A stretch of 33,713 nt of DNA from Candidatus Sulfotelmatobacter sp. (GTDB lineage Bacteria; Acidobacteriota; Terriglobia; Terriglobales; Acidobacteriaceae): positions 1 through 33,713 of the forward strand of contig JASHNX010000320.1 in assembly GCA_030041415.1 (NCBI GenBank), in the 5' to 3' direction. The notes under the pieces were generated by a model. It worked only from the letters and a program-made list of their open reading frames with translations. It had not been told where the DNA came from and did no database searches. Position 1 is the first letter of the stretch; each line of letters begins with the position of its first letter. Of this stretch, positions 4,453-30,681 are shown piece after piece. Position numbers and translations under genes: made by a program.

Positions 4453-4615
4453 CAGTTATCTCAACTTTCCCGATGGCACATAAGTGATCGTTTCCTCGTC
4501 CACAGAGGAACCGATTGCTGCGGCTACAGTATTTACCTTAGACCGTCGGGGGAATAGTCTCGATATCATATTGGTAAAGTCTCTGCGCCCCCTCGGCCTT
4601 ATAGGAAGTCAAAGA

Positions 4616-6256
4616 ATGGAAAGTGCATCTACCAGCGGGGTGCGACAACAGACTCGCCAAAGTCCCAGACATAAATCTGCAGCCGTGCGATATTCCGTGG
4701 CGGTGCTGGTAACGGTTGCCGCGCTGGGGCTGCGGTTCCTGCTCGCGCCGTTATTTGGAGCACACGCTCCATTCGTAACGTTTTGGGCTGCGATCATTTT
4801 TTCGGTGTGGTGGTGCGGGACGGGGCCGTCGATCATTACTGCGTCGATTGGGTTGCTCTCTGGATGGTATTGGTTTCTCGCCCCGGCTCATTCCCTCGCG
4901 CTGAAGGACCCGAAGACCGGAATTGCCATCATGACTGGATACTCCGTTCTGTCGGCTCTGGTGATCACTTTCGGGCATGTGGAGAGGCGATCACACACCA
5001 GATTGCAGGAACTGGAACGAGAGCAACGGCGGTTGAAAGAAGACGCTGTCGCCGCTACGGCCAAATTCCGAGCGGTGTTCGAACAAACCACGCAGTTTGC
5101 GGGCGTGATGACCCTGGACGGCACGTTCATTGACGCTAACCGCTTGTGCCTGGAGGTTTGCGGATACCGCGCCGAGGAGGTGCTGGGCAAGCCATTCTGG
5201 CAGACAGCATGGTGGCGCAACCATCCCGAGTCACAAGAAAAGATTCGCGCGGCAACACCGGAAGCGGCGGAGGGCGCTCCCTACCGCGAGACTCTTCTAT
5301 ATTCGTTCGCGGACGGAAGCGAACACATCGTGGATTTCGCGCTGTACCCGATCCGCGATCCCGAAGGCAGGGTTCTTTTCCTGCATCCGACGGGAGTTGA
5401 CATCACCGATTTAAAGCGCGTGGAGACTGAACTTCGCCATTCGCAGGGAGAACTGGAGCGGAGGGTGGAGGAGCGTACGCAGGCGCTGGCGACAAGCCTG
5501 GCGAGCCTGGAATCTGAAGTCGCGTTGCGGAAGGTGACCGAGAAATCTCTCCGCGAACTCTCGGCTCGAACACTTCGCCTGCAGGACGAAGAGCGGAGGC
5601 GTTTTGCGCGCGACCTGCACGACAGCACCGGGCAGACGCTGGCGGCATTAAAGTTGTCGCTGGCTTCGCTTACGCAAGTCATATCGGGCGTCTTGAAAGC
5701 GCCCGGATTGCTGGATGATCTGGATGCGCTGGCCGAGCAAGCACTGACGGAGATCCGCACCACTTCTCATTTGCTGCATCCGCCGATGCTCGATGAGGTT
5801 GGATTTTCGTCCGCCGCGCAGTGGTATGTGGACGGTCTGAGCAAGCGAAGCGGCATCAAGACGAACCTGGAGCTTGCGGTTCGGCCGCAGCTGACAAAAG
5901 ACGAGGAGCTAGTTTTTTTTCGCGTGCTGCAGGAAAGCCTGACGAATGTTTTGCGGCATTCGGGGAGTCCAGCGGTGGACATTCGACTGGATGCGGACGA
6001 GAAAGACGCGCTTCTTTCGATTAAAGACTACGGAAAGGGCATTCCTCCGCACACGCTCGACAGTTTTCGGCAGACGGCGGCCGGGGTCGGCGTGGGGTTG
6101 GGGGGAATGAAGCAGCGCATCCGCGAACTGGGCGGCCATCTTACCGTGGAGAGCGACGAGAAAGGAACGTGCGTTACGGCAACGCTGCCACTCACCAAAG
6201 CAACCTCGGTAAGCGAGGGTGAGCCTGCCGAAGACCGGACGATTGCCGCAGACTGA
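4616..6256 (+). CDS. membrane PAS sensor histidine kinase (DUF4118-like + PAS + HisKA_3)
   Basis: ATG 4616 is preceded by AGGAAG (4603-4608, 7-nt spacing). The frame is open back to a GTG at 4484, but that stretch has no ribosome site and unlike composition, so 4616 is preferred (546 aa). Residues about 22-120 hold four hydrophobic segments resembling the KdpD-type DUF4118 domain, then a short coiled coil, a PAS domain (about 140-270), a second coiled coil, a HisKA_3 domain with His335 in RDLHDSTGQTL, and HATPase_c with Asn444 (ESLTNVLRHS) and Asp471 (DYGKGI). It shares the kinase core (HLLHPPMLDE versus YLLHPPLLDE) with the upstream gene, 163 bp away, suggesting an old tandem duplication with different sensors. 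No response regulator is adjacent. Confidence 0.9.
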   Translation: MESASTSGVRQQTRQSPRHKSAAVRYSVAVLVTVAALGLRFLLAPLFGAHAPFVTFWAAIIFSVWWCGTGPSIITASIGLLSGWYWFLAPAHSLALKDPKTGIAIMTGYSVLSALVITFGHVERRSHTRLQELEREQRRLKEDAVAATAKFRAVFEQTTQFAGVMTLDGTFIDANRLCLEVCGYRAEEVLGKPFWQTAWWRNHPESQEKIRAATPEAAEGAPYRETLLYSFADGSEHIVDFALYPIRDPEGRVLFLHPTGVDITDLKRVETELRHSQGELERRVEERTQALATSLASLESEVALRKVTEKSLRELSARTLRLQDEERRRFARDLHDSTGQTLAALKLSLASLTQVISGVLKAPGLLDDLDALAEQALTEIRTTSHLLHPPMLDEVGFSSAAQWYVDGLSKRSGIKTNLELAVRPQLTKDEELVFFRVLQESLTNVLRHSGSPAVDIRLDADEKDALLSIKDYGKGIPPHTLDSFRQTAAGVGVGLGGMKQRIRELGGHLTVESDEKGTCVTATLPLTKATSVSEGEPAEDRTIAAD

Positions 6257-6282: not shown

Positions 6283-6663
6283 TTAGGGCTTCAAGGTCTG
6301 CAAATGCTTTCGGATCCAGCTTAGTATTTGTGCGAACCGGAACTCCCCGCGCTCCATCGAACCGGTGATGAAATCGAACCCGGCTCTCGCGCCGATTTCA
6401 ATGCAATAACCATTCCTCCGCAGGAAGACGTCGGTCGCCGCGAAGGCGATGCGCTTATTGCCATCGATAAAACCGTGGTTGTTGGCCAACGATTCCATGA
6501 GCGCAGCAGCTTCTTCTTCAACCGAGTTGTAGTAACCCGTTTGCGGACGAAAAACAGCTGCCTCGACCGCACCCTGGTCGCGAATGCCCTGCAACCCGCC
6601 AAAGAGTTCAATCAAGCGGTGCTGCATCTGGTAGACCTCCGCAACCGTCAAGAAATCTGACAT
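6283..6663 (-). CDS. doc: Doc/Fic-family toxin (death on curing)
   Basis: A 126-aa Fic-fold protein with the Doc-type motif HGFIDGNKR at residues 63-71. In this family the His is catalytic, Lys and Arg bind phosphates, and the Doc branch phosphorylates elongation factor EF-Tu and stops translation. The length matches phage P1 Doc (126 aa). Its ATG (6661-6663) directly follows the TAA of the upstream antitoxin gene with no spacer, so the two are surely co-translated. It converges on the histidine kinase gene with a 26-bp gap. Substrate identity (EF-Tu kinase or AMP transferase) cannot be told from sequence alone. Confidence 0.9.
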   Translation of the reverse strand: MSDFLTVAEVYQMQHRLIELFGGLQGIRDQGAVEAAVFRPQTGYYNSVEEEAAALMESLANNHGFIDGNKRIAFAATDVFLRRNGYCIEIGARAGFDFITGSMERGEFRFAQILSWIRKHLQTLKP

Positions 6664-6894
6664 TTATTTAGCGAGACGTTCGAGCAGGTCGCGGTTCTTG
6701 GCGACCGACTGTTCAAAGGCATTCATGACTTCTGGACGCACCAGCCGCTGGGAAGGGACGACATTGCGAAGGTAGAAGGTAAGTGCCTGCTCAAGCACGT
6801 ACCTTTGGGATTGGCCATTGCGCTTGGCAACGGAGACGAATTCTTTGTAGAGCTTAACGTCGATTTCAGGGGTGAACTTCTTGGTGGCGGACAT
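6664..6894 (-). CDS. RHH-like antitoxin of the Doc module
   Basis: A 76-aa protein starting MSATKKFTPEIDVKLYKEF. A short beta strand is followed by two helices, as in ribbon-helix-helix DNA-binding domains, and then a C-terminal region (about residues 50-76, ending NRDLLERLAK) that would wrap the toxin. It sits immediately upstream of doc in the usual antitoxin-first order. ATG at 6894 is chosen over a TTG at 6918 because a near-perfect promoter (6901-6928) overlaps the latter. It should neutralise Doc and autorepress the operon. Family assignment rests on predicted fold and context; it is not a typical Phd protein. Confidence 0.75.
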   Translation of the reverse strand: MSATKKFTPEIDVKLYKEFVSVAKRNGQSQRYVLEQALTFYLRNVVPSQRLVRPEVMNAFEQSVAKNRDLLERLAK

Positions 6895-6900
6895 AGATAT

Positions 6901-6928
6901 ATTATATCGGTCGCCCAAGAAAAATCAA
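6901..6928 (-). promoter_or_regulatory. sigma-70-type promoter of the antitoxin-doc operon, leaderless
   Basis: On the minus strand TTGATT (6923-6928) is separated by 16 bp from a perfect TATAAT (6901-6906). The expected start of transcription, 7 nt downstream, coincides with the A of the antitoxin ATG at 6894, so the mRNA would be leaderless. There is no Shine-Dalgarno, which agrees. Confidence 0.6.
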
Positions 6929-6996
6929 GGTTAATCTTGGGAACGGTTGAGCGCCCGCTGAGCACGGGGGTGGGATGGCGGCCACAAGAATACTTA

Positions 6997-7188: not shown

Positions 7189-8559
7189 GTGAGCCCCACA
7201 GAAACTTCCGATACGGCGAAGGCCGACGCCAAGCAGCCAGAGGCTAATAAGCCTGAGGCTAATAAGCCTGAGGCCAATAAGAAAGATACGAAGCGAGAGA
7301 TTTCGGTCGAGATTCCGGCCGAAGAAGTCGCCCGCGAGACCGAAGTGCAGATTCGGCGCTATCAGAAGAGCGCGCGGTTACCGGGATTTCGCTCCGGGCA
7401 CGTGCCTCCTTCCATCATTCGACAGCGATTTGGCGAAGGCATCAAGAGCGATGTGGCTGAGGCGCTGATTCCGAAATATTTCCGCAAAGAAGCCGAAAAA
7501 CAAGGGCTGGTTCCCGTCTCGCAGCCGCGGGTGAGCGATCTGCATATTCACGATGGCGAGCCGCTACGCTTCAAAGCAAGTTTCGAAGTGCTGCCTGAAA
7601 TTCCCGTTGAAGGTTACAAAGAGCTGCGCGCGGACAAACCGGAAATTTCCGTTTCCGATGAAGAGGTCGAGCAGACACTGAATAACGTGCGCGAGCAGCA
7701 TGCTGCCTATGCGAATGTGGAAGGCCGGACGTTGCAGGAAGGCGACTTCGCGCAGGCGTCATTACAGGGCAAACCAAAAGAAGAGGATGGCAAACCGAAA
7801 GATAGCGCCGACGCGGACGCGAAGCCGGTGCACATGGATGATGTGCTCATTGAGATTGGCGGGAAAAATACGGTGCCGGAGTTTACGAAGAATTTGACCG
7901 GGGCATCGGCGGGCGAAGAGCGAAGCTTCGATGTGGTTTATCCGGAAGACAGTACCGACAAGCGGCTCGCCGGAAAAACTTTCGTTTACACGGTCAAAGT
8001 AAACGGGATCAAGCAGAAGAATCTTCCTGAGTTGAACGATGACTTCGCCAAGGAGCTTGGAGAATTCACCAGCCTCGACCAGGTGCGGAAACAGATTCGC
8101 GAGAACATTCTGGCCGAAAAGAGCCATACCGCTCAGCGTGAAGCCAAGGATAAGCTGGTGAATGAACTGGTGAAGCGCAACGATTTTCAGGTTCCGGAAT
8201 CTTTAGTCGATCGGCAGATCGATTTGCGGCTGGAGCGCGGGCTGCGCGCGCTGGCGGCGCAGGGCATGAAGGTAGAAGACATGAAGAAGATGGACCTTCC
8301 CAGGCTTCGCGCAGGGCAGCGGGAGCAGGCGGTACAGGATGTGAAGTCGTCGCTGTTGCTGGAACGCGTGGCCGATCTCGAGAAGATCGGAGTCAGCGAT
8401 GACGAGTTGAACCAGGAGATCGAATCGCTCGCCAAGCAGTCAAAACAGACGCCGGAAGCGGTTCGCGCACGATTGACACAGGATGGGGGCCTCGATAGAA
8501 TCCGGATGAGAATCCGCAGCGAAAAGACCCTCGACTTTCTTTATCACCAGTCCGCGTAA
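7189..8559 (+). CDS. tig: trigger factor, ribosome-associated chaperone
   Basis: A 456-aa protein that binds the ribosome exit tunnel and shields nascent chains. After a low-complexity N-terminus (about 30 residues, Ala/Lys/Glu-rich) comes the ribosome-binding domain with the signature [10 protein letters not shown] (about residue 65). Next is an FKBP-type prolyl isomerase domain (about 170-270) carrying an acidic Lys/Asp/Glu insertion around 197-215, then the helical C-terminal substrate cradle. GTG 7189 is the only start after an in-frame stop at 7153. It heads the tig-clpP-clpX-lon block, an order common in bacteria that couples folding with degradation. The N-terminal repeat (7240-7284) is absent from typical trigger factors. 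Confidence 0.97.
7240..7284 (+). repeat. three tandem 15-bp units inside tig
   Basis: The units begin at 7240, 7255 and 7270. The first two are identical (GAGGCTAATAAGCCT) and the third diverges at its end. They encode repeats of Glu-Ala-Asn-Lys-Pro in the disordered N-terminus, ahead of the ribosome-binding domain, and are probably a slipped-strand expansion that can vary in number. Confidence 0.85.
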
Positions 8560-8583
8560 ATCAAGCGCGGACACTTCGACCCT

Positions 8584-8611
8584 CCCCGAAAAGCAAGTGG
8601 TGGTTTCGGGG
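8584..8611 (+). promoter_or_regulatory. 8-bp inverted repeat between tig and clpP
   Basis: CCCCGAAA (8584-8591), a 12-nt loop, TTTCGGGG (8604-8611). It sits 25 bp after the tig stop and just before the candidate clpP start codons, with no U-tract. It may act as an mRNA stability or attenuation element, or mask the clpP start. It is unlikely to be an efficient intrinsic terminator. Confidence 0.4.
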
Positions 8612-8651
8612 CGGAGTGTGGCAGGTGCACGTGAAAAATAACGATCCACAT

Positions 8652-9251
8652 ATGATGCTGGTACCGATGGTCATCGAGCAGACCGGGCGGGGCGAACGCG
8701 CCTACGATATTTATTCCCGGCTGCTCCGCGACAACATTATTTTTATCGGCACGCCGATTGACGACAACATCGCCAACCTGGTAATTGCGCAGATGTTGTT
8801 TTTGGCGCAAGAAGATCCGGAGAAAGACATCCAGCTTTACATTAACTCTCCGGGCGGGTCGATCACCGCCGGCATGGCGATCTATGACACCATGCAATAC
8901 GTAAAGAACGACGTAATGACGCTGTGCGTGGGGCAGGCGGCGTCAATGGCGGCGTTGCTGCTTTCGGCGGGCGAGGCGAAGAAACGGCTGGCGCTGCCGA
9001 ATTCGCGCATTTTGATTCATCAGCCTTCGATGGGGGGCTTATCCGGGCAGGCGACCGACATCGATATTCACGCCCGGGAAATCCTCCGAATGCGGGAAAT
9101 CACTAACCAGTTACTATCGAAACATAGCGGACAGAAACTGGATAAGGTAGAAAAGGATGTAGAGCGCGATTTCATCATGAACGCGCAACAGGCGAAGGAG
9201 TACGGAATCATAGACGATATCATCTATAAGACCGGAAAGGCTGTAGGATAG
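8652..9251 (+). CDS. clpP: ATP-dependent Clp protease proteolytic subunit
   Basis: The serine protease subunit forms the double-heptamer barrel that degrades proteins fed in by ClpX. The catalytic triad is visible: Ser98 in GQAASMAA, His123 in [10 protein letters not shown] and Asp173 in ERDFIMNA (numbering from ATG 8652). The NSPGGS oxyanion motif is at 65-70. About 199 aa is normal for the family. The frame is open upstream with GTG codons at 8616 and 8631, but family proteins start close to LVPMVIEQT, so 8652/8655 is preferred. No strong Shine-Dalgarno precedes any candidate. It lies between tig and clpX, 37 bp from the latter. Confidence 0.96.
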
Positions 9252-9288
9252 GCCTTCGCGTGGTGACAAGCAAAAGGAGTAGAGCTGA

Positions 9289-10563
9289 GTGAAAACCAAG
9301 TCTTCGGACGAGATTTTGCGTTGTTCGTTCTGCCATAAATCGCAGGATGCTGTTGCCAAGCTGATCTCATCCCCCAGTGACTACCCCCGCGCTTATATCT
9401 GCGACGAGTGCGTCGCGGTTTGCAACTCCATCCTGGAAGACGACCGCACGGCGACGCCGCAAACAGCGCCACCCAACCAACTGCCCAAACCGCAAGAGGT
9501 CAAGACATTCCTCGACGAGTACGTCATCGGGCAGGAACAGACCAAGAAGAAGCTAGCAGTGGCGGTTTACAACCATTATAAGCGTATCTTCATGAACCGG
9601 CAGAAAGGCACGGACGGGATCGAGCTGAGCAAGTCGAACATCATGCTCATCGGCCCGACGGGCACCGGCAAGACGCTGCTGGCTCAGACGCTCGCCCGGA
9701 TGCTGGATGTACCCTTTGCCATTGTAGACGCGACCACGCTCACGGAAGCGGGGTACGTGGGCGAGGACGTCGAGAACATCATTCTTAAGCTACTGCAGGC
9801 TGCGGAGGGCGATGTAAGCCGCGCCCAGACCGGCATCATCTATATCGATGAGATCGACAAGATCGGGCGCAAAGATGAGAATCCTTCGATCACTCGCGAT
9901 GTTTCCGGCGAAGGCGTGCAACAGGCGCTGCTGAAGATTCTTGAAGGAACGATCGCGAATGTGCCGCCGCAGGGCGGGCGGAAACACCCGCACCAGGAAT
10001 TTACCCCGGTCGATACGACGAACATTTTATTCATCTGCGGCGGGGCGTTTGTTGGACTGGAAAAGATTATCGGGCGACGGATTGGGAAGAAATCGCTCGG
10101 CTTCCGCAGCGGAGAAGAAGCGGCCAAGGAAGATCTTGCCGTATCGCGCAAGCGAAATTTTGAACTGCTCAGCGAGATTCAGCCGGAAGACCTGATCAAG
10201 TTCGGGCTGATCCCGGAATTCGTCGGCCGGCTGCCGGTAGTTGGCATGTTGGAAGATCTGGACGAAACGGCGCTGATTGAGATCCTTACGCGGCCCAAGA
10301 ATGCGATCGTGAAACAGTACCAGCGGCTATTCGAGTTCGAGAACGTGCGCCTGAAATTCAGCGATGAGGCGCTGCGGGCAGTCGCGCGGCAGGCAATGGC
10401 ACGAAAAGTAGGCGCGCGCGGCCTGCGCATGATTCTGGAAGAACTGATGCTTGATTTGATGTTCCACCTGCCGAGCCAGAAAAAGTTGAAAGAGTTCGAA
10501 GTGACGCGGGAGATGGTAGAAAAACGCAGTGCTTCGATGGCCGCGCTGGAGAAGGCCGGGTAG
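9289..10563 (+). CDS. clpX: ATP-dependent Clp protease ATP-binding subunit ClpX
   Basis: A 424-aa AAA+ unfoldase that recognises tagged or native substrates and threads them into ClpP. GTG 9289 is preceded by AAGGAG (9274-9279). It has the N-terminal zinc-binding domain with Cys12, Cys15, Cys38 and Cys41. Walker A is GPTGTGKT (122-129). The pore loop is GYVG, Walker B is [10 protein letters not shown], and the RKH loop GGRKHPHQE that contacts substrate is present. The C-terminal arginine-sensor region [14 protein letters not shown] is intact. It directly follows clpP, so stoichiometric co-expression is expected. Confidence 0.98.
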
Positions 10564-10575
10564 TAAGATAGTAGC

Positions 10576-10662
10576 GTGCAGGATAAGTACCAGAGCCTGA
10601 CAACGATTGGCATTCTGCGTACGATGATTGAGACGTTTCTAGAAACCAGGGAGACCGAGTGA
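10576..10662 (+). CDS. possible 28-aa small ORF between clpX and lon
   Basis: GTG 10576 to TGA 10662 encodes [20 protein letters not shown] and eight more residues. It fills the 95-bp clpX-lon gap, and its stop overlaps the lon start by 4 nt (GTGA), the pattern expected for translational coupling. There is no clear Shine-Dalgarno ahead of it, and the ORF covers the lon ribosome site, so it could equally be chance. Not recognised. Confidence 0.25.
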
Positions 10663-13073
10663 CCACATCCAAGGAAAAGTTCGAAACCAAAAAGCTGCCG
10701 ATGATGCCCATCCGCGACGTGGTCATCTTTCCTTTCATGATGACTCCGTTCGTTGTGGGACGCGAATCGAGCGTTCGAGCCCTGGAAGAAGCTCTCGCGG
10801 CAGACAAGAAGATTTTCCTGGCCACGCAACACGATGCGTCGATCGATGAACCGAAAGCGAACGAGATCTACCAGGTGGGAACGGTTGTAAATATCGTGCA
10901 GAGCCTGAAACTGCCCGACGGAAACATTAAAGTTCTGGTTGAAGGGATTGAGCGCGGCAGGCTGTTGCAGGCGACAGATGCCGACGGTTATATGCAGGCT
11001 TCAGTGCGGCTGGCGCGATACCCCACGGAGATGAACCCGCAAATCGAGGCCAGCATGCAGCGGGTAACGACGCTTTTCGAGCAGTACGTGAAGCTGTGCC
11101 AGGCTCTGAATTACGAGACCATGATTTCTGCGGTGCGGATGGAAGATCCCGCCAAGTTGACGGACATTATCGCTGCCAATCTGCAGCTTTCGATTGAAGA
11201 AAAACAGGAACTGCTGGAAATTTTTGATCCCGCCGAGCGACTGAACCGCATCGCAGACGTGCTCGATGTGGAAATCGAGAAACTGAATGTTGACCGGACC
11301 ATCCAGTCGCGCGTCAAGCGGCAGATGGAAAAGGCGCAAAAAGAGTATTACCTCAACGAGAAGATTAAAGCCATTCAGAAAGAGCTAGGACGCGGCGAAA
11401 AGAGCGAGTTCGACGAGCTGAAGAAGAAAGTCGAAGCCGCCGGCATGCCGAAAGAAGTAAAAGATAAGGCTCTGCAGGAACTGAAGAAGCTTGAGGCTAT
11501 GCCGCCGATGTCGGCCGAGTCGACGGTATCGCGCAATTATCTGGATTGGCTGCTGGCTGTGCCGTGGAAAAAACGGTCGAAGGAAATCCGCAATATCTCG
11601 CGGGCCGAAAAAGTTCTGAATGAAGATCATTACGGGCTGGAGAAGATCAAGGAACGCATTCTGGAGTTTCTGGCGGTGCGGCAGCTGGTGAAAAACCCCA
11701 AGGGATCGATTCTGTGCTTCGTTGGACCTCCGGGAGTGGGAAAGACTTCGCTGGGCATGTCGATCGCGAAGGCTACGGGGCGAAAGTTCGTGCGCATGTC
11801 GCTGGGCGGAGTACGAGATGAAGCCGAGATCCGCGGACATCGGCGCACGTACATTGGGGCGCTGCCGGGACAGATCATTCAGATGATGAAGAAGGCGGGA
11901 ACGAAGAATCCAGTCTTCATGCTCGATGAAGTCGACAAGATGTCGATGGATTTTCGCGGTGATCCGTCGGCCGCGCTGCTGGAAGTTCTTGACCCGGAAC
12001 AAAACTTCATGTTCGTCGATCATTACCTTGACGTGGAGTACGACCTGTCGCAGGTTTTCTTCGTAGCTACGGCGAACGTGCTGCACACGATTCCTCCTGC
12101 GTTGCAGGACCGCATGGAAGTGCTGCGGCTGCACGGATACACCGAGCAGGAAAAAGTCGAGATTGCAAAGCAGTTTTTGGTGAAAAAGCAGATGGCGCAG
12201 GCGGGATTGTCGGAGAAGAACGTGAAGTTTTCCGATGACGCGATTACGACGCTGATCCGCGCTTATACGCGCGAGGCGGGAGTGCGCAATCTGGAGCGCG
12301 AGATTGGCAACGTTTGCCGGAAGATCGCGCGTAAGGTCGTGAAAGAGGGCGCGGATTATACGGTCGATGTGACCGGCGACAACGTGAAGGAATTTTTGGG
12401 AGTGATCAAGTTCCGCGACACGCTGGCGCATGAAAAGAGCGAAGTCGGCCTAGTGACTGGCCTGGCGTGGACGGAAGTTGGCGGATCGATCCTCAGCACG
12501 GAAGCTACGGTTGTCGATGGCAAAGGCAAGTTGACGCTGACGGGGAAGCTGGGCGACGTAATGCAGGAATCGGCGCAGGCCGCTCTTTCTTATGTACGTT
12601 CCCGGGCGAATCGTCTTGGACTGAATCGCGATTTCTATCGCAATCTCGACCTGCACGTACATGTGCCGGAGGGAGCAATTCCGAAGGACGGGCCGTCGGC
12701 GGGAATTACCATCGCGACCGCGATTGCCAGCGCGTTGAGCAAGATTCCGGTTCGGCGCGATCTGGCGATGACCGGCGAAATTACTTTGCGGGGCAAGGTT
12801 CTGCCGATCGGCGGATTGAAAGAGAAATTGCTGGCCGCGCATCGCGCAGGACTGTTTGAAGTGATCCTTCCGCAGGAAAACGAAAAAGACTTGGCTGAAG
12901 TTCCGGAGAACCTGCGCAACGCGATGAAATTGCACTTCGTGGATACGATGGATCAGGTGCTGCAGATTGCGCTGGAGGGTCCATTGCCCACCATCGGCGA
13001 AGAGGTGCCCACGCAGCCGATGGCGCCGCCGCTTACCTCGAGCACGGGAGATGCTCCAACGGCGCATCAGTAA
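10659..13073 (+). CDS. lon: ATP-dependent protease Lon
   Basis: An 804-aa protein, standard LonA length, which degrades damaged and short-lived regulatory proteins in the cytosol. In order: N-terminal substrate-binding LON domain (about residues 10-205, [15 protein letters not shown]), a coiled coil (about 210-300), the AAA+ module with Walker A GPPGVGKT (Lys362) and Walker [10 protein letters not shown], and the C-terminal peptidase with the Ser680/Lys723 dyad ([18 protein letters not shown]). GTG 10659 follows AGGGAG at 10648-10653. A Pro/Thr-rich tail of about 25 residues ends the protein. It is the last gene of the proteostasis block. Confidence 0.98.
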
Positions 13074-18761: not shown

Positions 18762-21413
18762 TTACGGGAGCTGGAGGTCGAAGGCATAGATTTCCTGGGC
18801 GCTGATGTCGCGGGTAAACAGGGGAATCTCGCCGGGAGCCAGGCCGCTCCAATAAGAGCCGCCGCTGAATAAGTCGGGGAATCGCCGGATGTTTTTCAAG
18901 TCGGTAATTTTCTCCAACTTCAAATCGTTCACTCGCAGACGGTAGAAGCCATTGCTCGTGCCAATGATGATGTCGAAGTATATGTACGAACTGTCGGGCG
19001 ACCACGTCAAATATCCAAACGAATCGAGACCGGGGGTATCCAGTTTCTTCCATGAACTTTTCTGGCAGTCGTACAGCATCAGCGTATTGCCGTCGGCGGT
19101 GAGCCCAAGAATGTAGCGGCCATCGGGGGACCAGCGCGGACCGAAGATTCCGTCGGAGCCGGGCAGCTTCGAGATCTGACGGGTATTCCAATCGAACAAT
19201 GCAGTCGAATACTGAGGCGTGGCGTCATCCACCGATCCAAAGGCCAGTTTTGTTCCATCCGGGGACCACGTCGGATCGGTAGCCCATAGCTTCGGGTCCG
19301 ATGCAATGCGCTCTGGGCTTCCACCGTCTTTGGAGATCACGTACACGCTCCAGACAGTTTCCGATGGGGTGGCCGCAAAGGCAATCCTCTTGCCGTCAGG
19401 CGACCAGTGCGCCAAGGCTGCCTTCATCGGAGGAAAGGTAAGTTGGACGCGTTCGCTTCCATCAGCCTTGCTGCGCCACAGGGTATGGTCGGAATCGTTG
19501 ATGTAGGTAAGCCACTGGTTGTCGCGGGAGAACTCCACGTCGCTGGCTGAGATGCCCCCGAGGAACGGCAGAAAGTCCTGGGATTTTGCGTCGTAACGGA
19601 CGAGCTCCGACCGCGGCTGAGTTCCGACGACGAAGAGTTGCTTTCCGTCACGACTGAGAGCCGGACGGCTGTATTGCAACGGACCGGTGGTGAGTTGAAC
19701 CGGCTCGCGCGAAACCTTCTTCCACCAAGCGATTTGATCGGCCACGATCCAAATATCGCTTGTGCCCTGGCGCACGCTTTGGAAGATGTAGTAGCTGCCA
19801 TCGGGAGTCCAAGACCCGTAGCTTTCATCGGAGGGGTGATTCCACCCGGCAAGGAAGGGATGCAGATGGCTGCCATCGGCTTGCATCTCCCACAACGTGT
19901 GGGTGTAGTCGGCTGGATTAAAGGTGGTGAATCGAATTGTCTTTCCGTCTGGAGAAAAAACGAACAAGTATGGCAGATCCACAGAGGTAGCAAGCTTCCG
20001 CGGGTTGGCCCCGTTGTGATCTGCGAGGTAAATGTCATGTCCTCTGCTCAGCATCATTTGGCCATTCGGTGTCCATCTGGCACCGAATGCAGTCACACCC
20101 AGAGGACGCGCTGAGCCTGCCGGAACTGGAATCGACCACAATGGACCATTCGCGGTAACGATCCATGCCAAATCCTGGCCGATCAATAATTCTGAAGACT
20201 GCGGGGAAATATCGAACAAAGTGGCGCCGGGAAAAGGAAGTTCAATCTGGGCCGCTTCGCCTCCGGTCGTGGAAATTTCGTTGACCGTCAAGCGGCCGGG
20301 CGCATTCTCCCCGAAATAGATACGGTTGGCGTCGGTGACGAGAGTATCCTTTGGCAAGCCGTCGTTAGTAATCTGCTTGACGGCCCCGAGTTTCGGTGGC
20401 GGGAGCGGCGAGCGCAAAACGATGTCAAGAATAGCCAGCACGGCCAGAATGCCGACCACCACCCCAATCAACCAGCGTGGCCGGTTGCGTGACGGGCGCT
20501 CTGCGTGCTCGGTGGCTTCGAGAGCCGGCGCTCTGCCCGACTCGGTGTCGCGTTTCAAGCGCTTGAGGTCAGTTTCCAGGTCAGCGGCGGAACGGTAGCG
20601 CAGATCGCGATCTTTTTCGAGGGCCTTGTTGATGAGGCGTTCGAGCCCAGCGGGCACACCGGGGTTCAAGCGCACGGGCGCGACGGGAGCGCGGTTCACG
20701 ATCGCTTCGCAGATCATCGCGGAAGTCTCGCCGCGAAACGGCAGTGCTCCAGTTGCCATCTCATACAAGACCGCGCCAAACGAGAAAAGATCGGTACGAG
20801 CGTCGAGCTCTTTGCCGCGCACTTGCTCGGGCGACATATAAGCGACCGTTCCCACCATGGTGCCAGGGCTGGTAAGGTGCGCATCGTCCAACGACTGCGT
20901 CTGAGTATTGATGGCGGCAATCTGGCTGGAAGAAACCGCGGGGGACGCAACTTTTGCGAGGCCGAAGTCGAGAATCTTGGCATGGCCGCGCTCAGTGACG
21001 AAGATGTTGGCGGGCTTGATGTCGCGATGGACGATGCCTTTGCTGTGCGCGGCATCGAGGGCGTCCGCGATCTCAACGGCCAAAGGTAAAAGAAGCTCGA
21101 GATCCAGCGCCCTACCCGCGATGCGATGTTTCAGGGTTACACCGTCGAGAAACTCCATAGCGATGAACGCATGACCGTTTTCTTCCCCGATGTCGTGAAT
21201 GGTGCAGATGTTGGGATGGTTCAGTGCAGAAGCCGCCTGCGCCTCGCGTTGAAAACGAGCCAGAGCTTGCGGATCGCGGGCCACATCATCGGGCAGGAAT
21301 TTAAGAGCGACGTAACGGTGAAGACGAGTGTCTTCAGCCTTGTATACCACGCCCATCCCACCGCCGCCCAATTTCTCGACGACGCGGTAGTGAGAGATCG
21401 TCTGCCCGATCAT
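18762..21413 (-). CDS. membrane Ser/Thr protein kinase with C-terminal TolB/WD40-like propeller
   Basis: An 883-aa PknB-type kinase. Residues about 9-285 are the kinase domain: glycine loop [14 protein letters not shown], Lys38 in VALKFL, catalytic HRDIKPAN (His129-Asp131), DFG (149-151), and SPEQ in place of APE. A juxtamembrane linker follows, then one transmembrane helix (314-333). The extracytoplasmic part of about 550 residues has repeated PD40/TolB-like blades ([45 protein letters not shown]). This architecture is common in Acidobacteria and suggests a signal-sensing propeller. The gene stands alone between repeat copies 2 and 3. The start has no Shine-Dalgarno but [16 protein letters not shown] is the usual N-terminus. 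Confidence 0.95.
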
Positions 21414-26407: not shown

Positions 26408-29400
26408 TTAGAAGGTCAAGTGCAATCCAAATTCGACCTGACGCGGCGAACCCAAGGTATAAACGCCGGTGCCGGCGCCCACGCGGTTGGCGAAGTGGCC
26501 CGCGTACGTGGTGCCATTGATGCTACCGGGCTGACCGTTAAGCAGGCCTGACATTTCACTCGTCGGCAGGTCGAAGTTGACGAAGTTGAACAGGTTAAAA
26601 GCCGCTACAGATGGTGTAATCGTAACCCTCTCCTTGATTTTATAGTTCCAGGAGAGAGTCGTGTCGAAAGTCCGCAGCCACGACATGTTGACTTGGCCGG
26701 CAGGAGCGAGAGCCAACGGAACGCCGCCGTTGTATGTGGCTCCAATGGCTGCCAGTTGCGATTGCGTGAACAGGCCGTTCTGAATCAGAACATTGCCCGC
26801 CGGAGTGGGTGTATGTACCGCGACCAAATTGTTGAAATTGGTGATGGTTTGATTGATGTTGCCGGCATTGATGCCTCGATCGAAGCTGCCGACGTGGGTC
26901 CCCGGGAGGGGATCCTGAGTCACGCCGCTGCCTTCGAAATCGGTGCGGAAGATCTCACCTGCACCAATGGCGGTATTAGGCACGGTTAGGGTGTTGGGGA
27001 ACGGGCTATCGAAGTGGCCGATGACTCCCCACTGGATTCCGCCACGGAAACGCAAGTAGCCGCCAAACGAGAGTTGGTTGGTGCGGTCGAGGGTGGAAGG
27101 CCCAAAATACTCGTTGACGTTCGCATTGTCCAGAGCCGGAATAATGAAGTCCTGGTCGCCGCTGGCAGCGGTCACGGCACTGTCGGCACCCACGCCTCCG
27201 CCAGTGTTCTCGAACCTCGACAGGGCATAAGAAATCTGGAAGTTCGCGACGGCTGCGCCGCGGAACGGATTGTTTACGTTCTCGACCAGCTTAGTCTGTA
27301 GACCGCTATAGAGCGACCGCCCAACGGGTGACAGAAAACCAAGAGGAGGCGAAAGAGGGTTGATGCCACCGAAGGCGCACTCGTAACCCAACGCTGCCAG
27401 GCAACTTTCGCCGCCCATGTCGCTGGAGGAACCTAAGCCATTGCCGGCATAGTTGCTCATGGTTGCTCCGGCGGCGATGGCACAGTTTATGCCTGCGACC
27501 CCCGCTGGGCAGCCAAACAAGGTATTTGTAGCTGTAATCGCATCGAGCGCACCCGCTTTATTGAAGAAGCGAACGTCTCCGGCATGATTCTGATCCACGC
27601 CTAAAAGGTAATGGGTTTGGACATTGCGTACGTAATCTGCGCTGAACACCATCCCGTTGCGGATTTGGCGCTGGATGCCAATGTTCATCTGCACCGAACG
27701 AGGAGTTCTGTAGTTCGGACTGAACATCGAATCACCCGACGCGAAAAAGCAGTTCGAACCATTCGTACAACCCGTGAGGTACTGTCCCGCATAGGAAGGA
27801 TTGGCCGCCTGAAGGTTGAACGGCGTGAGGGACGCAAATTGCTGCTGCAATGCGATCAGAGGAGCAAGCGTATTGCCAATCAACGGGAAAACGGTGGCGC
27901 CTGCCGGGCCGCAGATAGCAGTCGCAGATGCGCTTCCGGGTGTGTTAATAGCGCCAGAGGGAGTTTGCAACACGGTAGGAGTTCCCGGAGCTGCGCAGGC
28001 TGAGAAGAATTGAAGGAAAGCGCCAGTTTTCTCGCGGAAAGGCCCGTCGAAGAGGACGTTGTTCCAGATGGCATTCTCATAGAACAGGCCGATGCCGCCG
28101 CGGATTGAGGTCTTGCCGTTTTTCCATGGGTCGTAAGTAAAGCCAGCCTGCGGAGCAAAGTTCTTATTCGGCTGGTTGACTGCATCACCTAGCCCAGGGA
28201 TCAAGGCGCTAAGCTCTGGAATTGGGGCGAACTGGCTGTCACTGCGGCCAGTGTCGCGTTCATAACGCAAACCATAGGTCACCATCAGATTCGATTTGAT
28301 CTTCCATCCATCACCCAGGTAGAGCAGGATTCGGTTGTCCGGGCCAAGACCGCCTGCCGGGAAGCCCAGAGCGGGATCGGTAAAGGAATAACCCAGTTCG
28401 TTCGTCAGAGTAGTGAAATCCGTCGGATAGTTGAACGGGTTGGCGGAGCCGCCAGGGAAGGGACCGGTTGCGGCCGAAGCGACCTCGCTGGGCAGAACGG
28501 CCGTACCAATCTGCGGGCCGTTTTTGAAGAAGGAAGCAAAACCGCCGCCTCGGAGATGGTTAAATGCGCCTCCGAAACGGATCATGTGCGAACCCCATAT
28601 TTTGCCGCCGTCGTACTTGATCTCGTGGTCGCTTTGCGGCGTACTCTGTGGCGCCAAAAGATTGGGACCGGCAACCAGATTTCCAGCGAAGAGTTCCGCG
28701 TGCAAATCGTCAAAAGGCAGGGCGCTGTTGCCGGTGGTCGCGTCTACGATTTGATTCTGGAACTTCAAAAACGAGAAGCGGATTGAATGAGTGAAACTCC
28801 CGGTATTGAAATCAAGCCCTACAAGCTCGTTTCGCGTGATATCAATATTGTCGTAGAGCGAGAATCCGTATCCGAAGGTGGCACCAAGATCGTTCTTGAA
28901 ATATGAGAAGCGGTCAAAAAGCCGAGCAGTCTTGGTGAGTTGGTAGTCCACGCGGGCCAGTAAATTGCCCTCGTGAAAGGGATCGGCGAATGTACCTGAA
29001 TACGATTCAAAGGGGGCATCGACGGGCACTGGAACCTGAGTGTGCTGGACGGTGCGCTCGCCGTCCAGAAAGTAATACAACTTATCCTTGAGGATCGGGC
29101 CGCCGAGGCTGCCGCCGTACTGGCTACGCTGGTAGGGCGCCGAAAAACCCACAGGCGTTGGCAGTTGCGACGAGAATGCGCTGTCGCGGAATGCGCCAAA
29201 AGCTTCGCCATGGATGGCATTGGTTCCCGACTTGGTGGTCACGTTTACCGACCCCGACGAGGTTAGTTCGCTTGACATATCCAGGCTTGACTGACTGACC
29301 TGAAACTCCTGGATAGCGCTGGCTGGGATATCAGTAGTGGTTGTACCCACAGTTTCGTCGGAGACGTCAACACCATCGACTTCGATGCGGGCAGTGCGAC

Positions 29401-29992
29401 CGAAGCGTCCGCCGAACGAAATTGAGGAGTAGCCAGCCTTGGTGGGATCGAAGTTCTGGCCATCCTGAATCTGGACGCCGGGTTCCAGTTGGGCCAGATC
29501 AAGGAAGTTGCGGCCGTTTACTGGTAGATTCTCGATTTGAGTAGCCGTCAGCACGCCTTGAACGGTGGCCTGCTCGGTATTGACTTGAACCTCGGTCCCC
29601 TGAACCTCAACGACTGTGCTTTCCTGGCCAATCTCCAACTTTGTACTCCCATTCGCCGTATTACCGATCTGGACGGTAATGAGCACTTGCGTAGTCTTGA
29701 AGCCCTTGGCTTCGACGCGCAGCGTGTAAACACCGGGAATCAGGGCGCCGGCGGAGAAGACACCTGACTGATTAGTTGTCACGTGAATCGTTTGCCCAGT
29801 TGAACCAGTAATCGTGGCTTTAGCATTGGGCAAGACTGCACCAGAAGAGTCGGTTACCGTGCCGGAGATGCTTCCGGTCGAAATTGAGGTCTGCGCAAGT
29901 ATCGACGAAGAAAAACGAGGAGATATGGAAAGAACCATCAGAATCGATCCCAAAATGAATGCCCGGGAGCGGATGGGATCAAGGTTAAGCAT
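26408..29992 (-). CDS. TonB-dependent outer-membrane receptor, Oar-like, with carboxypeptidase-regulatory domain
   Basis: 1194 aa from ATG 29992, with AGGTAGGTG upstream; a frame extension to 30232 has no signal peptide and is rejected. The signal peptide ends near SSSILAQ (residue 34). Residues about 38-130 are a CarboxypepD_reg-like beta-sandwich (SISGTVTDSSGAVLPNAKAT). The plug follows (about 140-270; LPVNGRNFLDLAQLEPGV, RIEVDGVDVSD), then a long beta-barrel with Asn/Gly/Phe-rich strands, ending in Phe (VEFGLHLTF) as needed for Bam insertion. This class is greatly expanded in Acidobacteria and thought to import plant-polymer breakdown products or other large ligands. No SusD-like partner or hydrolase is adjacent, so the substrate is unknown. 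Confidence 0.95.
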   Translation of the reverse strand: MLNLDPIRSRAFILGSILMVLSISPRFSSSILAQTSISTGSISGTVTDSSGAVLPNAKATITGSTGQTIHVTTNQSGVFSAGALIPGVYTLRVEAKGFKTTQVLITVQIGNTANGSTKLEIGQESTVVEVQGTEVQVNTEQATVQGVLTATQIENLPVNGRNFLDLAQLEPGVQIQDGQNFDPTKAGYSSISFGGRFGRTARIEVDGVDVSDETVGTTTTDIPASAIQEFQVSQSSLDMSSELTSSGSVNVTTKSGTNAIHGEAFGAFRDSAFSSQLPTPVGFSAPYQRSQYGGSLGGPILKDKLYYFLDGERTVQHTQVPVPVDAPFESYSGTFADPFHEGNLLARVDYQLTKTARLFDRFSYFKNDLGATFGYGFSLYDNIDITRNELVGLDFNTGSFTHSIRFSFLKFQNQIVDATTGNSALPFDDLHAELFAGNLVAGPNLLAPQSTPQSDHEIKYDGGKIWGSHMIRFGGAFNHLRGGGFASFFKNGPQIGTAVLPSEVASAATGPFPGGSANPFNYPTDFTTLTNELGYSFTDPALGFPAGGLGPDNRILLYLGDGWKIKSNLMVTYGLRYERDTGRSDSQFAPIPELSALIPGLGDAVNQPNKNFAPQAGFTYDPWKNGKTSIRGGIGLFYENAIWNNVLFDGPFREKTGAFLQFFSACAAPGTPTVLQTPSGAINTPGSASATAICGPAGATVFPLIGNTLAPLIALQQQFASLTPFNLQAANPSYAGQYLTGCTNGSNCFFASGDSMFSPNYRTPRSVQMNIGIQRQIRNGMVFSADYVRNVQTHYLLGVDQNHAGDVRFFNKAGALDAITATNTLFGCPAGVAGINCAIAAGATMSNYAGNGLGSSSDMGGESCLAALGYECAFGGINPLSPPLGFLSPVGRSLYSGLQTKLVENVNNPFRGAAVANFQISYALSRFENTGGGVGADSAVTAASGDQDFIIPALDNANVNEYFGPSTLDRTNQLSFGGYLRFRGGIQWGVIGHFDSPFPNTLTVPNTAIGAGEIFRTDFEGSGVTQDPLPGTHVGSFDRGINAGNINQTITNFNNLVAVHTPTPAGNVLIQNGLFTQSQLAAIGATYNGGVPLALAPAGQVNMSWLRTFDTTLSWNYKIKERVTITPSVAAFNLFNFVNFDLPTSEMSGLLNGQPGSINGTTYAGHFANRVGAGTGVYTLGSPRQVEFGLHLTF

Positions 29993-30681
29993 GGCGCACC
30001 TACCTTTCGGAGTTCCTGGCGTAGATTTTTCGACATTCGAGCACTTCGGTCTGGAGCCCGCAGCCAATTTGAAAGAATCGTGGTCCAACAGACTGGAAAA
30101 AATGAAACAGAACCTAGTCAAGAAGAATCCGAGCGATGATCTCGAATCGAAACTAGATCTGTGGGTTGTGGCAATTTCAGAACCATCAAGCGGATGGGCC
30201 AAGAAGTCGATGGATACAACCTTATAAATCAATGTGTTAGCTGGCTATTTAAAGACAAAATACGAAAACTAGGATAGTTGGGTTTGTGTATAACAATACG
30301 CGATATCATAGTTTTGTTATGAATAATATTGGTTCCTTTGGGGATAGGCAGTACAAAAAACTGTATCCTTGTTGTGAAAAAGAGAACAGCAGTGCCCACC
30401 GGGCATCGCATCAAGAACACATCGGGAGAGCAGTTATGGTCAACTGACGTAATATCCCCATTACACTCATTGGCTCCCGACCGGGAGTTTTCAGTGAAAT
30501 CGCCTGTTTACATCAAATTATCCGGCTGCCATTGACCACTCGCTCCCCGCATAGGATAATCCCAGCCTGCCGATGAGGCACCTTCCCCTTGTCGCCGATC
30601 TGATCGAAGGAATCGATCCCGCGTATTGCTTAGGTTTGCCCATGCGGATCTCGCAACCTTTGCGTTAGGGAGGGATTGCCG
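29993..30681. other. 689-bp divergent intergenic region, AT-rich centre
   Basis: It separates the TonB receptor (minus) from the repeat protein (plus). The centre (about 30225-30410) is clearly more AT-rich than the rest of the window (TTTTGTTATGAATAATATTG and similar) and should hold one or both promoters; several -10-like hexamers exist, none assignable. Palindrome copy 10 is at 30440-30524. No gene seen. Confidence 0.6.
30440..30524 (+). repeat. interspersed palindrome family, copy 10
   Basis: Left arm CAACTGACGTAATATCCCC then ATTACACTCATT, tip hairpin CTCCCG-AC-CGGGAG (30474-30487), right arm CAGTGAAATCGCCTGTTTAC then ATCAAATTA. Full copy with its own extra stem at the tip. Confidence 0.8.

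What the first reader, a model, noticed from the sequence alone, without database searches (positions are those of the whole stretch)
6283..6928. Doc toxin with an RHH-like antitoxin on a predicted leaderless mRNA
The Doc motif HGFIDGNKR is intact, but the partner looks like a ribbon-helix-helix protein rather than Phd. TTGATT-16 bp-TATAAT places the transcript start on the antitoxin ATG, and toxin translation then depends entirely on read-through coupling from a TAA/ATG junction with no spacer. Leaderless antitoxin translation would respond differently from leadered mRNAs when ribosomes are impaired by the toxin.
Basis: partly seen in the sequence, partly recalled or inferred. Interest (0 to 1): 0.5.

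Follow-up and report, generated by a model that had tools for sequence, protein, structure and literature searches.

The report
Doc toxin with hybrid leaderless antitoxin
A soil acidobacterium carries a known kind of growth-stopping toxin whose antidote seems to join an unusual DNA-binding head to the usual toxin-blocking tail, and the message for the antidote probably begins exactly at its start codon, unlike in most close relatives.

Summary
6283-6663(-) is a Doc toxin (TIGR01550 over cut-off; Doc-fold Z 17.5). 6664-6894(-) is a 76-aa antitoxin with a predicted ribbon-helix-helix head, not Phd. TTGATT-16-TATAAT ends 6 nt before its ATG; the stop|start junction has no spacer. Of 37 homologous promoters (window included), the -10 lies 16-31 nt before the start in 34, 6 nt here and in L105, and 8 nt in L088. 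Same-locus relatives keep a leader with a GAGG core, so the leaderless arrangement looks derived. -10-like boxes at 6 nt are also enriched elsewhere in this genome. The claimed consequence is weak: Doc inactivates EF-Tu, which every mRNA needs, and leaderless toxin-antitoxin operons are known in M. tuberculosis. The most useful result was not in the finding: the antitoxin ends in a tail that recurs behind several antitoxin head types upstream of Doc, and whose spacing matches the six hot spots mapped in Salmonella Phd. Best reading: a hybrid type II toxin-antitoxin module, RHH head plus Phd-C-like tail, probably leaderless. A new variant of a known kind; nothing was tested at the bench.

The parts
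6283..6663 (-). Doc-family toxin gene, 126 aa, HGFIDGNKR motif, stop TAA
   Evidence: Pfam Fic 47.1 bits (cut-off 24); TIGR01550 42.9 bits (cut-off 38.65); phrog_577 Doc-like toxin 2.9e-28; Doc part of the model Z 17.5 to 3dd7_A
6664..6894 (-). antitoxin gene, 76 aa, ribbon-helix-helix-like head plus C-terminal tail
   Evidence: phrog_3180 Arc-like repressor 1.3e-4; RHH_1 16.7 bits, below cut-off 20.5; model matches RHH proteins over residues about 7-50 at Z 3.2-4.4
6667..6714 (-). codons 61-76 of the antitoxin: most of the putative Doc-blocking tail (positions F60, S63, V64, N67, L71, L74; F60 is the codon 6715-6717)
   Evidence: leave-one-head-group-out score 22.9, reached by 0 of 657 control C-termini; register of published hot spots
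6661..6666 (-). zero-gap junction: antitoxin TAA directly followed by toxin ATG
   Evidence: sequence; zero-gap stop|start in 25 of 42 homologous loci, window included
6901..6906 (-). -10 element TATAAT, 6 nt before the ATG
6923..6928 (-). -35 element TTGATT, spacer 16 nt
   Evidence: conserved position in homologues
6914..6941 (.). inverted repeat CCCAAGA-14-TCTTGGG spanning the -35: candidate operator
   Evidence: an AAGATTTATCTTGA-like block around the -35 is conserved in relatives
6896..6908 (.). small palindrome GATATA-A-TATATC over the -10; possible operator or chance of A+T-rich sequence

Best explanation
A hybrid type II toxin-antitoxin operon. The toxin is a Doc kinase that would stop translation by phosphorylating EF-Tu (inferred from family). 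The antitoxin is a dimeric ribbon-helix-helix repressor that binds repeats over its own -35 (inferred). Its last 17 or so residues form a kinked helix that lies in the Doc groove and neutralises it, as the Phd tail does (inferred from sequence, hot-spot register and a model). Transcription most likely starts on the antitoxin ATG, so the antitoxin is read from a leaderless mRNA, and ribosomes ending at TAA restart on the abutting toxin ATG (predicted). Same-locus relatives keep a leader with a GAGG core, so the leaderless state here arose by loss of about 14-16 nt between -10 and start.
For: Doc; Z 17.5 to P1 Doc against 9.3 for the best Fic protein outside Doc. RHH head; helices 13-25 and 30-45, then tail helix 54-75. 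Tail: 71 of 72 tails in seven head groups exceed the 99th percentile of 657 control C-termini, and 70 of 72 that of their shuffles, with their own group left out of training; positions -14, -11, -10, -7, -3, 0 correspond to Salmonella Phd Phe56, Ile59, Met60, His63, Leu67, Leu70; the tail profile finds the E. faecalis antitoxin 9vzc_B 49-76, weakly (E 0.1, sixth in the list); in the read-through model the tail helix breaks at residue 67, near the position of the Phd kink at Gly64. Leaderless; same-locus relatives L085, L103, L104, L106 have 20-22 nt and a GAGG core.
Against: No transcript, protein or toxicity data. RHH_1 is below its Pfam cut-off here; Foldseek gave no match at E 0.001 or better for the antitoxin; RHH Z-scores are only 3.2-4.4, a level the tool warns may mean a common arrangement; the best-ranked PDB matches of the family profile were designed repeat proteins, with RHH chains at E 0.0024 and weaker. 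The operator half-site is weaker here (1, mean 2.20). L105, the other 6-nt case, has Arg in place of the catalytic His. The exact TATAAT at 6 nt occurs 3 times against mean 0.61, with 3 also the background maximum. The read-through model joins the two proteins artificially. Hydrophobic spacing is partly what any amphipathic helix gives, and positions -4, -5 and -8 are conserved without being hot spots.
Confidence: 0.7

Rival explanations
1. Same hybrid module, but leadered: a second, unrecognised promoter further upstream makes the main transcript, and the TATAAT box is minor or chance.
For: No start site has been mapped. Promoter-like sites occur by chance (2 found, shuffle mean 0.6). The -10 signal at 6 nt is 14 against 4.55 in 4,491 starts, so most genes of this genome are not leaderless by this test.
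Against: The -35/-10 pair stands where 36 other loci have theirs, with spacer 16-18 (in L099 and L112 the picked -35 is not TTGA-like), and DNA more than about 25 nt upstream of the -35 is not conserved. No Shine-Dalgarno core precedes the ATG.
Confidence: 0.22
2. A decaying module: the toxin is being lost in this lineage and the leaderless promoter is relaxed rather than adaptive.
For: Of 42 loci, 11 gave no in-frame Doc with the motif; of these 4 have a full-length frame with a changed motif, 2 are broken, 4 showed no Doc within 480 nt, and 1 (L125, itself a fragment) was not looked at further. Two same-locus relatives (L085, L109) keep the antitoxin without a whole toxin.
Against: In the window both frames, the Doc motif, the tail and a consensus -10 are intact.
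Confidence: 0.15
3. The antitoxin is of the Phd/YefM fold, and the RHH call is wrong.
For: The toxin is Doc, whose best-known partner is Phd; the tail resembles that of Phd.
Against: Predicted helices at 13-25 and 30-45 after an extended N-terminus; RHH proteins fill the top structural rows over residues about 7-50; Arc-like repressor profile 1.3e-4. The one Phd/YefM partner of Doc that I gave to Pfam was recognised at 4e-10 (L043).
Confidence: 0.04

Closest known systems
Phd-Doc of phage P1 and of Salmonella (3dd7, 3k33, 3kh2)
   Same: Doc fold and motif; C-terminal helical tail of the antitoxin; tail positions in the same spacing as the six Salmonella Phd hot spots (PMC9207808, passages seen); antitoxin gene first, toxin next.
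   Different: The DNA-binding head is ribbon-helix-helix-like, not Phd/YefM; predicted leaderless mRNA.
TasA-TasB (MazE-Doc) and E. faecalis 'Phd'-Doc (9vzc)
   Same: Doc with a non-Phd head; in E. faecalis the tail is a bent helix in the concave surface of Doc (PMC13034048, passages and section 13 seen; PMC1626090, passages and section 8 seen).
   Different: AbrB/MazE-type head instead of RHH.
PanA with Phd-C element and Doc (C. doosanense)
   Same: A Phd-C element attached to an unrelated domain neutralises Doc; exchangeable linear neutralising elements are proposed (PMC10440598, passages seen).
   Different: Panacea domain instead of RHH; there tested by experiment, here predicted.
Leaderless toxin-antitoxin operons of M. 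tuberculosis
   Same: Toxin-antitoxin gene pair on a leaderless mRNA (32 of 37 pairs with a primary start site; PMC3898074, passages seen).
   Different: Another phylum; there measured, here predicted; here most relatives of the same operon keep a leader.

Membership tests
Doc (death-on-curing) toxins, Fic superfamily | TIGR01550 above curated cut-off | tested here: met
   42.9 bits, cut-off 38.65
Doc (death-on-curing) toxins, Fic superfamily | HxFx(D/N)(A/G)NKR motif | tested here: met
   HGFIDGNKR; motif as given in PMC13034048
Doc (death-on-curing) toxins, Fic superfamily | fold nearer to P1 Doc than to other Fic proteins | tested here: met
   Z 17.5 (3dd7_A, rmsd 1.8 over 119 residues) against 9.3 for VbhT, the best row outside Doc
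Doc (death-on-curing) toxins, Fic superfamily | EF-Tu kinase activity, growth arrest | not testable with these tools
   needs bench work
Ribbon-helix-helix (RHH) antitoxins | Pfam RHH family above cut-off | tested here: not met
   RHH_1 16.7 bits, cut-off 20.5. Of 16 relatives in A1, 8 match Antitox_RHH and 6 RHH_1 at E up to 0.1, best 5.9e-5; L011 and L013 stay under the Antitox_RHH cut-off. So it works like an RHH head by model, but is not a curated Pfam member
Ribbon-helix-helix (RHH) antitoxins | strand, helix, helix in the first 45 residues, matching solved RHH proteins | tested here: inconclusive
   helices 13-25 and 30-45; the strand is drawn as coil in the monomer model. 29 of the 30 best rows are RHH proteins by my labelling (7vp6 unlabelled), Z 3.2-4.4; phrog_3180 Arc-like repressor 1.3e-4. 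Points to RHH, but Z is low
Ribbon-helix-helix (RHH) antitoxins | dimer binding operator repeats at its own promoter | tested here: inconclusive
   repeats over the -35 in relatives, 2.20 half-sites a locus against 0.39 in shuffles over 35 loci, 1 in the window; binding not testable
Phd antitoxins | Phd/YefM fold of the head | tested here: inconclusive
   Pfam listed no Phd/YefM family for this protein at E up to 1; the model fits RHH better
Phd antitoxins | C-terminal Doc-neutralising element with six hot spots and a kink | tested here: inconclusive
   register and spacing fit and the helix breaks at 67 in the read-through model; Ser63 and Asn67 stand where Phd has Ile59 and His63; no binding data
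Leaderless mRNA | transcription start within 5 nt of the start codon | not testable with these tools
   predicted from the -10 position; no RNA data
Leaderless mRNA | TANNNT about 12 bp upstream of the start codon (PMC3160421) and no Shine-Dalgarno core | tested here: met

The most novel reading that the evidence does not exclude
Doc toxins are neutralised through one portable peptide: about 16 residues with six fixed contact positions sit behind antitoxin heads of at least three unrelated folds (Phd/YefM, MazE/AbrB, RHH-like) and several unnamed head groups, so heads can be swapped while the lock stays the same. And in this acidobacterial family one such operon has lost its leader more than once, which gives natural pairs of leadered and leaderless versions of one toxin-antitoxin operon in which to ask what leaderless initiation does to the antitoxin:toxin ratio.
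Probability: 0.5. Interest if true: 0.55.

Novelty: new variant of a known kind. Interest (0 to 1): 0.42.

Why it matters
If the tail is one shared peptide, the partner of a Doc toxin could be predicted from a 16-residue motif, and unnamed Doc antitoxins could be recognised. The idea of exchangeable neutralising elements (PMC10440598) would gain a case that is measurable in sequence, with published hot spots to test it. The leader difference between same-locus relatives would allow a clean test of leaderless initiation in a toxin-antitoxin operon outside mycobacteria.

Tried and rejected
Considered and dropped. A Phd fold for the antitoxin (no Phd chain stood among the fold rows shown, which excludes nothing). 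A defence-system reading: PADLOC matched the toxin only, to candidate-system models (PDC-M59B 9.2e-11, PDC-S23 3e-9 best), probably through the shared Fic domain. A recent plasmid or phage origin: phages 35 records, plasmids 111 records, all under 60% identity, best 52% in acetic acid bacteria. One clade for the leaderless state: the tree has few columns for its rows; in 0 of 200 bootstrap trees were window and L105 one clade, but the well-supported branches do not rule out a single origin. P1 Phd as a direct control of the tail score was not obtained; P1 is not among the 30 of 35 phage rows listed. A Phd-like partner (L043) against the PDB gave no useful match. The tail profile against the PDB ranked five mitochondrial mS25 chains above 9vzc_B, all at weak E-values.

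What could mislead. Promoters are the best-scoring pair and starts the first in-frame ATG (else GTG or TTG) near the expected place, chosen by script. Of 43 antitoxin places given as loci (L082-L100 and L101-L125 without doubles), L101, L102, L123 and L125 were left out beforehand and L118 had no start; 39 rows remained, 37 with a promoter (L095 and L109 none). L002 and L095, and L003 and L089, appear to be the same loci from two collections. In one search, 78 of 80 Doc loci gave an upstream ORF (L004 and L068 none); L048 and L066 did not end in the motif; the pick for L021 was in a wrong frame, and L005 is frameshifted. That pick preferred ORFs ending in L[ASG] where several were on offer, which favours the tail. 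In one search I scored 72 tails: the window and 71 of the 78; left out were L005, L008 (near copy of L007), L020, L021, L066, L070 and L071. In one search, tails are anchored on the Leu, so its conservation there is by construction. Head groups were assigned by me from Pfam hits of 10 representatives and by eye; 'BactX' and 'CyaX' are my labels.

How a Phd-type tail neutralises Doc is itself not settled: PMC13034048 argues for toxin dimerisation with the motif left exposed, PMC10440598 for contact with the active site, PMC9207808 for locking an inactive form (passages seen).

Claims of what is not in print rest only, in one open-access library, with listings cut (25 of 44; 10 of 33). One search (death-on-curing with ribbon-helix-helix) found 0 papers. 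A marine survey lists 3 Doc/DUF6290 pairs that I could not place.

Full report
What is there. On the minus strand, 6894-6664 encodes a 76-residue protein and 6663-6283 a 126-residue protein; the TAA of the first abuts the ATG of the second. They lie between a PAS-domain histidine kinase gene (4484-6256, plus strand) and the divergent run trigger factor, clpP, clpX, lon (7189-13073, plus strand). The host genome (4.8 Mb, 350 contigs) is taken as acidobacterial because the nearest named loci are Terriglobia and gp1 Acidobacteria. It holds one Fic-domain match and one match to this antitoxin.

The toxin. It passes the cut-offs of Pfam Fic (47.1 against 24 bits) and TIGR01550, the death-on-curing family (42.9 against 38.65), and matches phrog_577 Doc-like toxin at 2.9e-28. 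By sequence its best solved relatives are the E. faecalis Doc 9vzc and P1 Doc 3k33, 3dd7 and 3kh2. In the predicted structure the Doc part aligns with 3dd7_A at Z 17.5 (rmsd 1.8, 119 residues); the best row outside Doc is VbhT at 9.3. HGFIDGNKR fits HxFx(D/N)(A/G)NKR. That it phosphorylates EF-Tu is inferred from the family (PMC13034048 and PMC4803016, passages seen).

The antitoxin head. Sequence evidence for RHH is weak protein by protein (RHH_1 16.7 bits, under its cut-off of 20.5), better with the Arc-like repressor profile (1.3e-4, residues 4-42) and across 16 relatives (Antitox_RHH in 8 of 16, RHH_1 in 6 of 16, Rv0623-like in 9 of 16 at E up to 0.1). A profile of the 16 against the PDB ranked designed repeat proteins first, with RHH chains such as 6iya and 4me7 at E 0.0024-0.0036. 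AlphaFold with 16 sequences gave mean pLDDT 77.3, helices 13-25, 30-45 and 54-75. Foldseek found nothing at E 0.001 or better. In the second aligner's list the 30 best rows, Z 4.4 to 3.2, are RHH proteins in 29 cases by my labelling, over residues about 7-50: MatP, Rv0298, AtaR, CopG, PutA, CdbA, Arc and others. Such Z-scores are low, but the list is one-sided. Pfam listed no Phd/YefM family for this protein at E up to 1. I take the head as RHH, short of a curated cut-off.

The tail. In 80 Doc relatives from named genomes (best of 435), 78 have an upstream ORF close to the Doc start, and 76 of the 78 end in L[ASG] followed by at most four residues. The ORF pick preferred that ending where several ORFs were on offer, and one of the 76 (L021) is a wrong-frame pick. 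The heads differ: among 10 representatives Pfam names Phd/YefM, MazE (two) and RelB at or over cut-off, RHH-type (three) and DUF2281 (one) below it, only weak odd matches for L018, and nothing for L023. I sorted 72 tails into seven head groups by hand and scored each group with a matrix trained on the other six. Tails above the 99th percentile of 657 C-termini from this genome: RHH 16 of 16, Phd 8 of 8, MazE 21 of 22, RelB 3 of 3, BactX 10 of 10, CyaX 11 of 11, DUF2281 2 of 2, in all 71 of 72; above the 99th percentile of their own shuffles 70 of 72. The window tail scored 22.9, which no control reached. Counted from the anchoring Leu (0), the positions richest in hydrophobic residues are 0, -3, -10, -4, -14 and -11, and -7 is mostly Asn, Asp or Tyr (43 non-redundant of 74 tails).

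The tail against experiment. An alanine scan of the Salmonella Phd tail found six hot spots, Phe56, Ile59, Met60, His63, Leu67 and Leu70, with Phe56 and Leu70 as gatekeepers and, in a model, a kink at Gly64 (PMC9207808, passages seen). Setting Leu70 on our Leu 0 puts them at -14, -11, -10, -7, -3 and 0. Mean hydrophobic fraction at these six positions is 0.78, against 0.43, 0.39 and 0.13 for shifts of -1, +1 and -2; 0.17% of all six-position sets do as well by hydrophobicity and 0.65% by conservation. Against a perfect match: -4, -5 and -8 are among the six most conserved positions and are not hot spots. Helix periodicity explains part of the fit, so these figures are a guide and not a proof. 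In the window the six are F60, S63, V64, N67, L71 and L74. I folded antitoxin and toxin as one chain by reading the TAA as Gln, with 10 other such pairs and 18 Doc rows. Mean pLDDT was 87.2, pTM 0.65, and the tail helix broke at residue 67 (54-66, 68-74), where the antitoxin alone gave one helix (54-75). A bent helix in the concave surface of Doc is what 9vzc shows (PMC13034048, section 13). I saw no coordinates or error map, and the join is artificial, so docking is suggested only.

The promoter. TTGATT-16-TATAAT ends 6 nt before the ATG. In 39 homologous loci with a start codon, window included, from genomes of the same family and genus, 37 gave a promoter pair: spacer 16 in 16, 17 in 15, 18 in 6; -35 beginning TTGA in 34. 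The distance from -10 to start was 6 nt in two (window, L105), 8 nt in one (L088, GTG start), 16-17 in ten and 20-31 in 24. A Shine-Dalgarno core was seen in 23 of 39, in none of the three short ones, but also not in 13 others. Antitoxin and trigger-factor genes lie within about 3 kb, divergent, in six of the 22 genus genomes with the antitoxin: G000, G161, G201, G206, G210, G218 (coordinates; three relatives also seen). Of these same-locus relatives, L085, L103, L104 and L106 have TTGATT-16-TAGAAT, then 20-22 nt with a GAGG core; L109 gave no promoter. So the promoter stayed and the leader shrank. In its genome L105 is on another contig than trigger factor, and its Doc has Arg for the catalytic His. 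A tree of 39 antitoxins is poorly resolved; it does not group window with L105 (0 of 200 bootstrap trees), yet a single origin is not ruled out by its well-supported branches. Loss of the leader more than once is therefore likely, not shown.

Is leaderless initiation normal here? Among 4,491 candidate starts of 1,197 ORFs of at least 100 codons in 1,426,750 bp of this genome (the 76-aa antitoxin is excluded by its length), TATAAT-like hexamers with at least 5 of 6 matches stand at 6 nt 14 times, against mean 4.55, sd 2.18, max 11 at 12-55 nt. For ATG alone 7 against 2.05, for GTG 6 against 1.20, for TTG 1 against 1.30; the control codons CTG and ATC gave 1 against 1.77 and 0 against 1.41. With at least 4 of 6 matches the peak is at 7 nt (38, at 6 nt 31, mean 18.36, max 27); exact TATAAT gave 3 at 6 nt, mean 0.61, max 3. 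Starts and ORFs were picked mechanically. That suggests about 1% leaderless genes of this type, at the spacing of our locus. PMC3160421 uses the same signal, TANNNT about 12 bp upstream (passages seen).

Operator. Around the -35 the relatives share AAGATTTATCTTGA-like repeats: 2.20 half-sites a locus against 0.39 in shuffles, 35 loci; L083 and L099 have none. The window has one half-site, with CCCAAGA-14-TCTTGGG across the -35 and GATATA-A-TATATC over the -10. Self-repression by the RHH head is the likely use; it is inferred.

How it most likely works. Shown by sequence: gene order, junction, promoter match, Doc motif, tail motif. Predicted by model: RHH head, Doc fold, bent tail. Inferred: repression at the -35, start at the ATG, leaderless translation of the antitoxin, termination-reinitiation into the toxin (no Shine-Dalgarno core in the 18 nt before its ATG; zero gap in 25 of 42 loci), neutralisation by the tail, EF-Tu as target, release when the antitoxin is degraded. 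The neighbouring Clp and Lon protease genes are a tempting link, but nothing here ties them to it.

Known or new. Doc with non-Phd antitoxins is known: TasA-TasB, with ten further groups of upstream genes (PMC1626090, passages and section 8); AbrB 55, xre 22 and yhfG 11 as Fic/Doc neighbours, RHH not among them in the table seen (PMC2701414, passages); and PanA with a Phd-C element (PMC10440598, passages), where exchangeable linear neutralising elements are proposed. PMC13034048 reports no significant similarity between E. faecalis and P1-type Phd, which fits a motif too short for pairwise search. I did not find the cross-head tail motif or an RHH-Doc pair described, but this library lacks most subscription journals. 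Leaderless toxin-antitoxin mRNAs are known in M. tuberculosis (PMC3898074). Hence a new variant of a known kind.

Verdict on the finding. The reading as a leaderless RHH-Doc operon is supported as a prediction. The proposed consequence under the toxin is not, because Doc acts on elongation. Interest is moderate, mainly for the shared tail and the natural leadered/leaderless pairs.

Noticed in passing
L002-L081 (Doc loci from named genomes): One C-terminal motif behind several antitoxin head types upstream of Doc genes, with positions matching the spacing of published Phd hot spots.
   Followed up: yes
L085, L109 (same locus as the window) and L108, L119, L123: Antitoxin or antitoxin-like gene without a whole toxin; L109 retains only the first codons of Doc, the others showed none within 480 nt.
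   Followed up: partly
L087, L093, L094, L105: Full-length Doc frames with a changed motif (GNMR, GNKP, GNRR, and Arg for the catalytic His in L105): toxins perhaps inactive beside intact antitoxins.
   Followed up: partly
window 7189-13073 (+): Trigger factor, clpP, clpX and lon follow divergently from the toxin-antitoxin operon; in six of 22 antitoxin-bearing genus genomes the antitoxin lies within about 3 kb of trigger factor.
   Followed up: partly
L231, L264 and other own-genome stretches listed: Other candidate leaderless genes of this genome with a -10 box exactly 6 nt before the start, among them what look by eye like thymidylate kinase and lpxB.
   Followed up: no
window 18762-21413 (-) and 26408-30232 (-): A protein kinase with WD40-like repeats, and a 1,274-residue outer-membrane barrel protein with a carboxypeptidase-regulatory-like domain.
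   Followed up: no
L005: Antitoxin gene apparently frameshifted upstream of a Doc frame with the motif.
   Followed up: no
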